Positions 35,601-42,759 of a stretch of DNA of 64,000 nucleotides are shown piece after piece. Position 1 is the stretch's first letter; every line of letters begins with the position of its first letter. The DNA is from Argopecten irradians. Taxonomy: Eukaryota; Mollusca; Bivalvia; Pectinida; Pectinidae. The DNA lies in assembly GCF_041381155.1 (NCBI RefSeq), contig NC_091137.1:18087655-18151654 (forward strand). The letters run 5' to 3'. The translations under genes and the position numbers were made by a program. The notes beneath the pieces were generated by a model that saw only the letters and a list, made by a program, of their open reading frames with translations, did no database searches and was not told the DNA's origin.

Positions 35601-38600
35601 CTTGTTTATACAACTATGTAGCTCTTATTATTCACTTATAATGCAAGTAAATAGTTAAAAAAAATATTCAGTATAATAATAATTCTTTTAAGATGAATAT
35701 ACAAAGCTAGGTCACAAAATAGTAATTGATTATTATTTACTTTCCTTGAATCAAGTAAAAGTCAAGAAACTTTCCACCTGTCAAAATTACCTGTTATGCA
35801 GTACGTATAACATGCACAGCGCTTCAGCACTAATGTGGACAGCCTTCTGTGAATTGATGTTAAGTCCATATGTCCATTATTCAAATAAAGTTTCATTCAA
35901 TGAAGAGGTTTATATTGTTCAAAATAAATATCCTTCATTAATTTTATGTATCCGTCTATTAGCTGTTATTCTCTTCTCTGATTTTAGATATCATCTTGTG
36001 TTTGTTACTTGTTGTCGCCTGCTGCTAGCCTAATTTCTGGAGAAACGGTCAAAGTAGACGGGGCCCATAGTCTGTACAATACCAAGTGGGAAATCAAGGG
36101 TAAGTCATAAAAGTAGACGGGGCCCATAGTCTGTACAATACAAAGGGAAATCAAGGGTAAGTCAGTAAAGTAGACGGGGCCCATAGTCTGTACAATATAA
36201 AGTGGGAAATCAGGGGTAAGTCAGTAAAGTAAAGTAGACGGGGCCCATAGTCTGTATAATATAAAGTGGGAAATCAGGGGTAAGTCAGTAAAGTAGACGG
36301 GGCCCATAGTCTGTATAATATAAAGTGGGAAATCAGGGGTAAGTCAGTAAAGTAGACGGGGCCCATAGTCTGTATAATATAAAGTGGGAAATCAGGGGTA
36401 AGTCAGTAAAGTAGACGGGGCCATAGTCTGTATAATATAAAGTGGGAAATCAGGGGTAAGTCAGTAAAGTAGACTGGCCATAGTCTGTATAATATAAAGT
36501 GGGAAATCAGGGGTAAGTCAGTAAAGTAGAACGGGATGTAGGCCATAGTCCTGTATAATAATAAAGTAGAAATCAAGGGTAAAAGTTCAGTAACAGTAGA
36601 CGGGGCCCATAGTCTGTATAATATAAAGTGGGAAATCAGGGGTAAGTCAGTAAAGTAGACGGGGCCCATAGTCTGTATAATATAAAGTGGGAAATCAGGG
36701 GTAAGTCAGTAAAGTAGACGGGGCCCATAGTCTGTATAATATAAAGTGGGAAATCAAGGGTAAGTCAGTAAAGTAGACGGGGCCCATAGTCTGTATAATA
36801 TATAAAGTGGGAAATCAGGGGTAAGTCAGTAAAGTAGACCAGGCCATAGTCTGTATAATATTATAAAGTGGGAAATCAGGGGTAAGTCAGTAAAGTAGAC
36901 TGGGCCATAGTCTGTATAATATAAAGTGGGAAATCAGGGGTAAGTCAGTAAAGTAGACGGGGCCCATAGTCTGTATAATATAAAGTGGGAAATCAAGGGT
37001 AAGTCAGTAAAGTAGACGGGGCCCATAGTCTGTATAATATAAAGTGGGAAATCAGGGGTAAGTCAGTAAAGTAGACCGGGCCATAGTCTGTATAATATAA
37101 AGTGGGAAATCAAGGGTAAGTCAGTAAAGTAGACCGGGCCATAGTCTGTATAATATAAAGTGGGAAATCAGGGGTAAGTCAGTAAAGTAGACGGGGCCCA
37201 TAGTCTGTATAATATAAAGTGGGAAATCAGGGGTAAGTCAGTAAAGTAGACGGGGCCCATAGTCTGTATAATATTATAAAGTGGGAAATCAGGGTAAGTC
37301 AGTAAAGTAGACGGGGCCATAGTCTGTATAATATAAAGTGGGAAATCAGGGTAAGTCAGTAAAGTAGACGGGCCATAGTCTGTATAATATAAAGTGGGAA
37401 ATCAGGGGTAAGTCAGTAAAGTAGACGGGGCCCATAGTCTGTATAATATAAAGTGGGAAATCAAGGGTAAGTCAGTAAAGTAGACCGGGCCATAGTCTGT
37501 ATAATATAAAGTGGGAAATCAGGGGTAAGTCAGTAAAGTAGACGGGGCCATAGTCTGTATAATATAAAGTGGGAAATCAGGGGTAAGTCAGTAAAGTAGA
37601 CGGGGCCCATAGTCTGTATAATATAAAGTGGGAAATCAGGGGTAAGTCAGTAAAGTAGACGGGGCCATAGTCTGTATAATATAAAGTGGGAAATCAAGGG
37701 TAAGTCAGTAAAGTAGACCGGGCCATAGTCTGTATAATATAAAGTGGGAAATCAGGGGTAAGTCAGTAAAGTAGACGGGGCCCATAGTCTGTATAATATT
37801 ATAAAGTGGGAAATCAGGGGTAAGTCAGTAAAGTAGACTGGGCCATAGTCTGTATAATATAAAGTGGGAAATCAGGGTAAGTCAGTAAAGTAGACGGGGC
37901 CCATAGTCTGTATAATATAAGTCAGGGTAAGTCAGTAAAGTAGACGGGGCCATAGTCTGTATAATATAAAGTGGGAAATCAGGGGTAAGTCAGTAAAGTA
38001 GACGGGGCCCATAGTCTGTATATATATAAAGTGGGAAATCAGGGGTAAGTCAGTAAAGTAGACGGGGCCCATAGTCTGTATAATATAAAGTGGGAAATCA
38101 GGGGTAAGTCAGTAAAGTAGACGGGGCCCATAGTCTGTATAATATAAAGTGGGAAATCAGGGGTAAGTCAGTAAAGTAGACGGGGCCCAGTCTGTATAAT
38201 ATAAAGTGGGAAATCAGGGGTAAGTCAGTAAAGTAGACGGGGCCCATAGTCTGTATAATATAAAGTGGGAAATCAGGGGTAAGTCAGTAAAGTAGACGGG
38301 GCCCATAGTCTGTATAATATTATAAAGTGGGAAATCAGGGGTAAGTCAGTAAAGTAGACGGGGCCCATAGTCTGTATAATATAAAGTGGGAAATCAAGGG
38401 TAAGTCAGTAAAGTAGACGGGGCCCATAGTCTGTATAATATAAAGTGGGAAATCAGGGGTAAGTCAGTAAAGTAGACGGGGCCCATAGTCTGTATAATAT
38501 AAAGTGGGAAATCAGGGGTAAGTCAGTAAAGTAGACGGGGCCCATAGTCTGTATAATATAAAGTGGGAAATCAGGGGTAAGTCAGTAAAGTAGACCGGGC

Positions 38601-41600: not shown

Positions 41601-42759
41601 AAGACGGGGCCCATAGTCTGTATAATATTATAAAGTGGGAAATCAAGGGTAAGTCAGTAAAGTAGACGGGGCCCATAGTCTGTATAATATTATAAAGTGG
41701 GAAATCAGGGGTAAGTCAGTAAACAATGCATGGGGCCACTGTCTGTACAACACAAATTGGGAAATCAGGCATTTTGGTTATTTTTTGTGCTTAGTAAATG
41801 GGTAAATCAAGGTTAAGTATTATTTCCAGGTAGTGCATTACCTGTAATTTAACAAAAACAAGTTTGGTTTTATGAAGAATATATTTCAATATGACTACAT
41901 GAAGATATGAGCTGATAGTATACGACCACAGGACTTGACATACCTGATTAAATCGCAGAAATCAAAGTTCTAATTCTGACTGTATAGGGAATGGGGGTTT
42001 TCCAACAGGAAGTCAGGATCTAGGTTTGAATACCAGAGGTATGAGTTTTTGTCAGCTAGTCCATAGCAAGAGAAGTTTGGGTCATTGTCTTATATAGTTA
42101 GAACACAGGAAAAGAGAATTTGATGTGAACAATGGTCAAAGGAATGAACAATGGTCATAGGAATGGTTTAGACTTTTTACTAATTTAGAGGAAGTCAGGA
42201 CTTAGTACTAAAGAAAGTAATGGTTTGGATTTGACCACACCAAGAATTTATTGAGAATTTTAACTACAAGTATTGTATGTAACACAACTTGTGACCAGTA
42301 GAAATAATGAAAAAGTTTTTAATTAACACTGGTAGGTTTCACGTTAGTTCCTTCCAAAAAAAGGTGACGAAATGGCCAAACTAATCCAAGAGTCAGAAAT
42401 TGTGGATCTAGATCAAAGCCAGTTAAATAGTGTAGAATTCATTATTTCAGCAATACATATATATCCTTCAAAAAGTCATGAAGTTTTTTTTGTCCTGATA
42501 GAAGGTAATTCTAGGTTTTTATCATTTTGGGGTTTTAATACATTAATTTTGATCTCTATCCTTGTAATAATATTTTATTGATCATGTTCAGAAATTCACA
42601 TTTTCTTGAGCTGTAGCTTATAACTGTAATTATTTTAATGTTTTGTGTTACCTGAATACTTTTAATTATACTCCAGATCACAAAAAACTTCCAGCCTTCA
42701 CTTGGAAGAACTACAAGCCGGAAAGTGAAGATGATGACGAGCCCAAATCCAAACTATGA
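29686..42759 (+). CDS. PECR: Peroxisomal trans-2-enoyl-CoA reductase, 8 coding exons
   Basis: Exons 29686-29809, 33120-33253, 33676-33841, 34217-34298, 34829-34925, 35319-35426, 35988-36099, 42677-42759; phases close to 906 bases, 301 residues (human PECR 303). It is a short-chain dehydrogenase/reductase that uses NADPH to reduce 2-enoyl-CoA in fatty-acid metabolism. The cofactor motif TGGGTGIG is at residues 24-31, LVNNGGGQF at 104-112, NLTGTF at 131-136, [15 protein letters not shown] at 169-183. Human PECR has Tyr179 in YxxxK; here residue 179 is Asp with Lys183 kept, as in 2,4-dienoyl-CoA reductases. The rest, including LVNNGGGQF and LLSPAAS, follows PECR. The C-terminus PKSKL ends in the peroxisomal targeting tripeptide SKL, which is encoded alone in exon 8, beyond the 5.7-kb array in intron 7. 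Confidence 0.95.
29941..29997. repeat. (GT)n microsatellite in PECR intron 1
   Basis: About 28 GT units with one early interruption. Confidence 0.9.
30665..32541 (+). mobile_element. AGCTCACCTGG element with about ten tandem 155-bp units
   Basis: Starts ttagctcacctggcctgaag with a ccgtcgtccgtcc run and ends ggccctctgggcctcttgtt. The body is a tandem array of a unit holding cctagagttctgcatggatt, ccaaatttggccagaaactt and a C-rich block ctgacccccctggggcagga. About ten units are seen at 30740-32460. Units near 31690-31980 are badly scrambled compared with their neighbours. It has no protein-coding role: the proline/glycine-rich open frames are C-tract artefacts. It occupies much of PECR intron 1. 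Confidence 0.85.
32008..32095 (+). repeat. 58-base C homopolymer and following C runs
   Basis: Fifty-eight uninterrupted C at 32008-32065, then short C runs ending in 16 C at 32080-32095. It sits where other units have only 5-6 C, so it is either a true expansion or an assembly error. Confidence 0.9.
32542..33119. other. End of PECR intron 1, nothing recognised
   Basis: AT-rich; ends in the exon-2 acceptor ttgaacttcag. Confidence 0.5.
34531..34680 (+). repeat. Diverged AGCTCACCTGG element fragment
   Basis: ttagctgacctggcccgacg followed by a (ccgtccat)n run and gcatggattgtaatc matches the start of the element at 30665. It lies in PECR intron 4 and is truncated. Confidence 0.55.
36054..41770 (+). 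repeat. 59-bp array made from the PECR exon-7/intron-7 junction, about 95 copies
   Basis: The unit runs gtagacggggcccatagtct, gtataatataaagtgggaaa, tcaggggtaagtcagtaaa. Its first 46 bases equal the end of PECR exon 7 (residues [15 protein letters not shown] plus one base), and the next bases are the real 5' splice site GGTAAGTC. Exon 7 itself holds the first unit (36054-36099). The next copies (36110, 36170) are intermediate in sequence (tacaata), and later ones carry the fixed variant tataata. Variants include ggggccata, ccgggccata and a +3 form aatattataaag. Nearly every unit keeps GGTAAGTCAG. The last degenerate unit ends near 41770. Confidence 0.97.
41771..42676. other. End of PECR intron 7, nothing recognised
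   Basis: Non-repetitive AT-rich DNA with a typical acceptor (atactccag) at the end. A 69-codon open frame at 42372 has no support. Confidence 0.5.

What the first reader, a model, noticed from the sequence alone, without database searches (positions are those of the whole stretch)
36054..41770. A satellite made of an exon-intron junction: about 95 decoy 5' splice sites inside PECR
The 59-bp unit is the final 46 bases of PECR exon 7 plus the intron-7 donor and a few bases more. Exon 7 contains the founder unit; neighbouring copies show intermediate bases, and distal copies carry fixed changes. Nearly every copy keeps a near-ideal U1 site (GGTAAGTCAG), so the transcript has one true donor followed by about 95 good decoys over 5.7 kb. 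Either the first donor always wins, or the array alters splicing, buffers U1, or makes minor isoforms. I know of no described case of a satellite seeded from a live coding exon/donor at this copy number, but could not search for one.
Basis: partly seen in the sequence, partly recalled or inferred. Interest (0 to 1): 0.88.

Follow-up and report, generated by a model that had tools for sequence, protein, structure and literature searches.

The report
Splice-donor minisatellite inside PECR intron 7
In an animal gene for a peroxisomal fat-metabolism enzyme, the end of one exon and its splice donor has been copied head to tail about 95 times into the next intron; such exon-border minisatellites are already known (amphioxus "mirages", human ABCA7 and CBS), and this is a long, uniform example in another gene.

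Summary
Window 36051-41769 is a 59-bp tandem array of 97 units: the live end of PECR exon 7 (unit 1), 95 repeats, and a decayed relic (unit 97). 91 of the 95 repeats keep a GGTAAGT donor whose predicted U1 pairing equals or exceeds the true donor's. PECR is confirmed (8 exons, 301 aa, C-terminal SKL), so the exon is the source. Corrections: the unit is 49 exonic plus 10 intronic bases, and the founder-to-array gradient is limited to units 2-3. Any decoy, or intron retention, gives an early TAA and removes the peroxisomal SKL.

The kind is known: exon-border minisatellites are "mirages" in amphioxus; human ABCA7 has a donor-bearing VNTR of up to ~427 units, CBS one of 16-21. From ABCA7, and minigenes where the upstream of two equal donors was used exclusively, I infer a mostly neutral minisatellite whose first donor wins, with a small PTS1-less leak. 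The donor is no better or worse preserved than other stable parts of the unit, so no selection on decoys is visible. Untested: RNA use, copy-number variation, assembly accuracy, species, genome-wide copies.

The parts
29686..42759 (+). PECR coding gene, 8 exons (29686-29809, 33120-33253, 33676-33841, 34217-34298, 34829-34925, 35319-35426, 35988-36099, 42677-42759), 301 aa, ends SKL
   Evidence: GT/AG borders and homology to human PECR 1yxm
35988..36099 (+). PECR exon 7; its last 49 bases (36051-36099) are the founder part of the repeat unit
36100..36109 (+). true intron-7 donor GTAAGTCATA, the intronic 10 bases of unit 1
36108..36110 (+). in-frame TAA reached if intron 7 is retained or a decoy donor is used; the protein would end ...EIKGKS after 277 aa
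36110..41720 (+). units 2-96 of the 59-bp array (95 units, 5611 bp), 91 with GGTAAGT
41721..41769 (+). unit 97, diverged relic without donor, with founder states C27 and C32
   Evidence: local score 48 against a maximum of 24.5 in 500 shuffles
41796..41818 (+). possible second, older relic with an altered donor (GGTTAAGT)
   Evidence: against the founder 3 of 500 shuffles of the rest of intron 7 score as high, against the consensus 33 of 500; in a narrow stretch chosen afterwards 0 of 500; weak
42677..42759 (+). last exon, carries the C-terminus including the SKL tripeptide
   Evidence: that SKL is a peroxisomal targeting signal is established knowledge

Best explanation
A 'mirage'-type minisatellite. 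A segment made of the last 49 bases of PECR exon 7 and 10 bases of intron 7 was tandemly duplicated, at least one copy decayed (unit 97), and a later expansion with homogenisation made the present 95 near-identical units, which fill 85% of intron 7. It is mostly a neutral passenger. By exon definition the first (true) donor, giving a 112-nt exon between a 561-nt and a 6577-nt intron, is used. A small share of transcripts uses the first one or two decoys (exon 169 or 228 nt). These reach TAA after GKS, lose the SKL targeting signal and, from the second decoy on, should be degraded by NMD. Shown: array, founder, donor integrity, reading-frame consequence. Inferred: history, neutrality, splicing outcome.
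For: Exon 7 is conserved coding sequence, so the direction is exon to satellite. Edge units 2, 3 and 97 keep founder bases at C27, as expected when array edges escape homogenisation, which PMC3087553 reports for mirages. The donor hexamer is intact in 91 of 95 repeats; the 36 hexamers of the unit (of 59) that avoid its variable sites are intact in 89-94: no sign of selection on the donor. 91 decoys pair with U1 at -10.0 to -11.9 kcal/mol against -10.0 for the true donor, so strength does not explain a preference for the first. In five exon-definition minigenes with two identical strong donors the upstream one was used exclusively (PMC9225289). In ABCA7 retention of exactly one VNTR unit was 2 +/- 1% of transcripts and did not change with VNTR length. 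[quoted passage not shown] The seven AG sites of the unit have 25-50% pyrimidine just upstream against 53-82% at the seven real acceptors, so splicing within the array is unlikely, though the best unit AG comes close to the weakest real one.
Against: No RNA evidence of any kind. In ABCA7 longer arrays go with lower expression and more skipping of the next exon, so such arrays can matter; its one-unit retention transcripts are NMD targets and rose when NMD was blocked, so 2% understates donor use. In PMC9225289 the upstream preference over natural human events of similar strength is only 60%, and without the strength filter the downstream site is preferred in about 60%. Decoys are predicted to be more accessible than the true donor (median 0.134 against 0.045; 3 of 93 lower). 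Unit 54 in the middle also has founder states and the overall trend is not significant. At all six variant sites tested neighbours share variants no more than by chance (lowest p 0.067) and no lag of 1-30 stood out, which simple unequal exchange does not predict; strong conversion or consensus errors are needed.
Confidence: 0.8

Rival explanations
1. Functional switch: decoys compete for U1 or the spliceosome so that a regulated fraction of PECR transcripts is extended or retained, giving a 277-aa enzyme without SKL that stays in the cytosol, or lowering PECR output through NMD.
For: Any decoy or intron retention reaches the TAA at 36108 and loses the SKL exon. 91 decoys are as strong as the true donor and not hidden in predicted structure. 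Loss or gain of a peroxisomal signal by alternative splicing is a documented way of dual targeting in fungi and plants (PMC3798809, passages). ABCA7 array length affects expression and splicing.
Against: The donor is not better conserved than other stable stretches of the unit. Only the first decoy junction lies under 50 nt from the stop (46 nt, then 105), so most products should be NMD targets. Comparable layouts show little decoy use. One or two copies would be enough for a switch (argument, not a result).
Confidence: 0.08
2. Partly an assembly or consensus artefact: the array is real but its copy number and many of its indel variants are wrong.
For: Most variation is indels in GGGGCCC, changes at position 47 and an ATTATA-type insert, scattered without neighbour sharing. 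Units 9, 47 and 79 look locally scrambled. PMC3087553 says that one amphioxus mirage appears aberrantly assembled in the draft genome (supplementary legend).
Against: The PECR exons are free of frameshifts. 26 of 95 repeats are of one identical type. The edge units differ in an ordered way, which an assembler would hardly invent.
Confidence: 0.1
3. A dispersed satellite that inserted here and merely resembles or overwrote the exon end.
For: The whole genome is not held, so copies elsewhere cannot be excluded.
Against: The exon end is homologous to human PECR. Best matches elsewhere in the window, both strands, score 22-24 against 23-29 in ten mononucleotide shuffles. A 27-base core has no exact match in viral contigs or genome contigs, but those are viral and prokaryotic collections.
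Confidence: 0.02

Closest known systems
Amphioxus 'mirage' minisatellites (Adh3; globins BflGb6 and BflGb9; PMC3087553, citing Canestro et al. 2002, not held)
   Same: Tandem repeats whose unit spans an exon-intron border of a live gene; many units with splice signals; edge units reported to escape homogenisation; Adh3 units 10-72 bp.
   Different: BflGb6 has 6 and 3 units in its two haplotypes, here 95; BflGb6 repeats the acceptor side, here the donor side is repeated (as in BflGb9). Other genes. Splicing and instability were examined there, not here.
ABCA7 intron 18 VNTR, human (PMC5954066)
   Same: The array starts at the live donor and includes it; 25-bp unit, about 12 to 427 units, up to 10678 bp; one-unit retention seen, with PTC and NMD.
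   Different: Array described as lying in intron 18 with no exonic part mentioned in what I read; the next exon (19) can be skipped, whereas here the next exon is the last.
CBS 31-bp VNTR c.1444_1467+7(16_21), human (PMC2630376; Lievers et al. 2001 not held)
   Same: By its notation the unit is 24 exonic plus 7 intronic bases, so exon end plus donor.
   Different: 31-bp unit, 16-21 copies. Splicing effects there are from memory, not read.
IFI6 (6-16) minisatellite with multiple splice donor sites, human (Turri et al. 1995, not held; PMC4526556 says two downstream repeat units serve as donors)
   Same: Minisatellite at a donor, repeats act as alternative donors.
   Different: Unit of 12 bp is from memory; here 59 bp. 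Use of donors shown there, not here.

Membership tests
mirage minisatellite (exon-intron border repeats) | unit spans an exon-intron border of a live gene | tested here: met
   49 exonic + 10 intronic bases; coding frame intact
mirage minisatellite (exon-intron border repeats) | head-to-tail tandem array of near-identical units | tested here: met
   97 units, 94% matches
mirage minisatellite (exon-intron border repeats) | many units keep splice signals | tested here: met
   91 of 95 repeats with GGTAAGT
mirage minisatellite (exon-intron border repeats) | homogenised centre, diverged edge units | tested here: inconclusive
   units 2, 3 and 97 keep founder states, but so does unit 54 in the centre and the overall trend is not significant
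mirage minisatellite (exon-intron border repeats) | regular splicing not disturbed | not testable with these tools
   no RNA data held
mirage minisatellite (exon-intron border repeats) | length instability between alleles or cells | not testable with these tools
   one sequence only; no genome held
ABCA7-type functional VNTR | array length changes splicing or expression | not testable with these tools
   needs alleles and RNA
peroxisomal trans-2-enoyl-CoA reductase (PECR) | near full-length homology and C-terminal PTS1 | tested here: met
   E 1.9e-101 to 1yxm over residues 1-280 of 301; ends SKL; import and activity not tested

The most novel reading that the evidence does not exclude
A repeat-encoded localisation rheostat: the number of decoy donors sets how often PECR transcripts are extended or retained at the last intron, and so the ratio of peroxisomal (SKL) to cytosolic (GKS-ending) enzyme, with array length varying between individuals.
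Probability: 0.05. Interest if true: 0.75.

Novelty: new member of a known kind. Interest (0 to 1): 0.36.

Why it matters
It is a natural extreme test of donor competition: one true 5' splice site followed by 91 near-identical ones of equal or better predicted strength, with an outcome readable from junction counts. Its place before the last, SKL-bearing exon gives a simple read-out (peroxisomal or not). It also adds a case to the question how minisatellites arise from coding DNA and whether such arrays feed intron growth.

Tried and rejected
Higher-order repeat structure: no lag from 1 to 30 passed p < 0.05 by exact unit type. Neighbour sharing at six variant sites: none significant; the ATTATA-type insert came closest, p 0.067. 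RNA structure hiding the decoys: not supported; a 236-nt stretch of about four units folds no better than shuffles (z 0.71, 152 of 200 shuffles at least as stable), and decoys are predicted more open than the true donor in both settings tried. Acceptors within the unit: weak. Relics in intron 6: none (123 of 500 shuffles score as high). Copies elsewhere in the window: none above background. Rfam at gathering thresholds and a tRNA scan with the bacterial code: nothing. Exact 27-base core in the viral and prokaryote collections: none. NCBIfam: 230 families matched, and each of the 25 shown scores below its cut-off, all general short-chain dehydrogenases. A tree of the units was not built; the units differ by very few substitutions. 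MaxEnt scoring was not run; U1 pairing energy was used instead.

Species: not identified. A bivalve-like origin is only my recollection of similar dispersed repeats; GC of 33-39% in 8-kb steps does not decide it. Amphioxus is not excluded.

Full report
Observation. The array is real. TRF reports 36051-41769 with period 59, 96.8 copies and 94% matches. The ten-base donor GGTAAGTCAG occurs 90 times, all inside the array, where shuffles give a mean of 0.11. A wraparound alignment gives 97 units: unit 1 is the end of exon 7 with its donor, units 2-96 are repeats (5611 bp, 85% of the 6577-base intron 7), and unit 97 is a diverged relic. 91 of the 95 units 2-96 contain GGTAAGT; units 9, 47, 79 and 87 do not.

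Gene. Eight exons on the + strand join to a 301-aa protein ending SKL. The first borders I tried held stops; of three border pairs at intron 3 that gave an open frame I took the one with GT/AG. The protein matches human PECR (1yxm) over residues 1-280 with E 1.9e-101; the 64 aa of exons 7 and 8 match it with E 8e-10 over their first 43 residues. The repeated part of exon 7 therefore was coding sequence long before the array, and the array derives from it. Outside 36044-41830 the best matches to the unit in the window score 22-24, within the 23-29 of ten mononucleotide shuffles. The genome is not held, so copies elsewhere in it are untested.

Unit anatomy and history. Founder states: C27 in units 1, 2, 3, 54, 97; C32 in 1, 2, 54, 97; C33 and the TA tail in unit 1 only; A47 in 19 units counting unit 1. 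Units 2-3 carry four founder states together (permutation p 0.0048), but over units 2-96 there is no significant trend with distance (Spearman -0.11, p 0.27), and by identity units 2-3 (54 of 59) hardly differ from the median (53). The relic at 41721-41769 is clear (score 48; maximum 24.5 in 500 shuffles). A second one at 41796-41818 is weak: 3 of 500 shuffles against the founder, 33 of 500 against the consensus. There are 46 types among 95 repeats, and 26 repeats are of one type. Variants at six sites do not cluster between neighbours and no higher-order period stands out. I read this as an old small array, partly decayed, followed by recent expansion with strong mixing; consensus errors at the indel-rich sites cannot be excluded.

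Splicing potential. Predicted pairing with the U1 5' end is -10.0 kcal/mol for the true donor, -10.3 for 63 decoys, -10.0 for 27, -11.9 for one, and -7.2 for two sites at unit borders; PECR's other six donors range from -5.5 to -11.5; of 442 GT sites in the gene outside the array, those donors included, 1.1% reach -9. Predicted accessibility is no barrier (median 0.134 for decoys, 0.045 for the true donor). The unit has no good acceptor (25-50% pyrimidine upstream of its seven AGs against 53-82% at the real acceptors). The donor hexamer is intact in 91 of 95 repeats, the 36 hexamers away from variable sites in 89-94: the donors persist because the whole unit is copied, with no visible selection either way.

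Consequence of decoy use. The frame runs from the exon into GGT AAG TCA TAA, so retention or a decoy ends the protein after 277 aa as ...EIKGKS and drops the last exon's SKL. The stop lies 46 nt before the first decoy junction and 105 nt before the second, so by the usual 50-55-nt rule (established knowledge) only the first could escape NMD. Inside the array AATAAA occurs only at 36560 and 38823, in the scrambled units 9 and 47.

Which donor wins. Exon 7 is 112 nt, intron 6 is 561 nt and intron 7 is 6577 nt, an exon-definition setting. Carranza et al. (PMC9225289; abstract and part 1 of the results read) found in five such minigenes with two identical strong donors that the upstream one was used exclusively; over natural human events the bias is weaker (60% upstream at similar strength) and without the strength filter it is about 60% downstream. 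The ABCA7 study (PMC5954066; passages and two sections read) describes a 25-bp VNTR with the exon 18 donor, about 12-427 units, in which retention of one unit was 2 +/- 1% and did not change with length, though such transcripts rose when NMD was blocked; exon 19 skipping rose and expression fell with length. In PECR the next exon is the last, so skipping has no direct counterpart; lower expression or retention is the effect to look for. Both papers are on human sequences; transfer to this animal is inference.

What is known. The amphioxus globin paper (PMC3087553; passages) describes minisatellite-like tandem duplications of exon-intron borders, called mirages, with units of 10-72 bp in Adh3 and 150-160 bp in globins, concerted evolution with excluded edges, length and somatic instability, and no interference with regular splicing. 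A human survey (PMC2812944; passages) reports tandem repeats at exon-intron borders that alter splicing. CBS c.1444_1467+7(16_21) is 24 exonic plus 7 intronic bases by its notation (PMC2630376; passages). For IFI6, PMC4526556 (passages) says two downstream repeat units act as donors, citing Turri et al. 1995, which is not held and which I otherwise saw only in reference lists. In ten searches no listed title concerned a PECR array, but none used PECR as a term, so this is no evidence that such a report does not exist.

Verdict. A new member of a known kind: a mirage-type minisatellite, notable for 91 donors of equal or better predicted strength, a uniform 59-bp unit and its place before the SKL exon. 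Most likely neutral, with a small decoy leak.

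Noticed in passing
1-4567: A 32-bp tandem array (GGTTTTTGTTACTGCTTTCTTGTGTTGCTGTT) fills the first 4.6 kb and starts at the window edge, so it may be longer.
   Followed up: no
30736-31721 (related sequence to about 32542) and 48058-48997: A 156-158-bp tandem repeat lies in PECR intron 1 and again, inverted, downstream of the gene; 25 of 77 inverted pairs were shown, arms up to 246 nt (82% complementary), shorter ones up to 94%.
   Followed up: partly
54858-57160: A broken retroelement: of three stretches searched two match reverse transcriptase (RVT_1; E 1.4e-6, just under the cut-off score, and 5.4e-10) in different open frames.
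   Followed up: partly
59800-60861: A 353-aa open frame with a zinc knuckle (zf-CCHC, E 0.0002), possibly a gag-like remnant.
   Followed up: partly
19163-22734: A series of exon-like pieces, + strand, upstream of PECR, that I recall as resembling part of an SLC6 sodium-dependent transporter (borders by eye); not searched against any library.
   Followed up: no
36560 and 38823: The only two AATAAA signals inside the array sit in the locally scrambled units 9 and 47.
   Followed up: no
5993-6439: Short 8/16/24-bp repeats of the TCGTGTTG / CGACAACA type occur in both orientations, like an inverted-repeat element.
   Followed up: no
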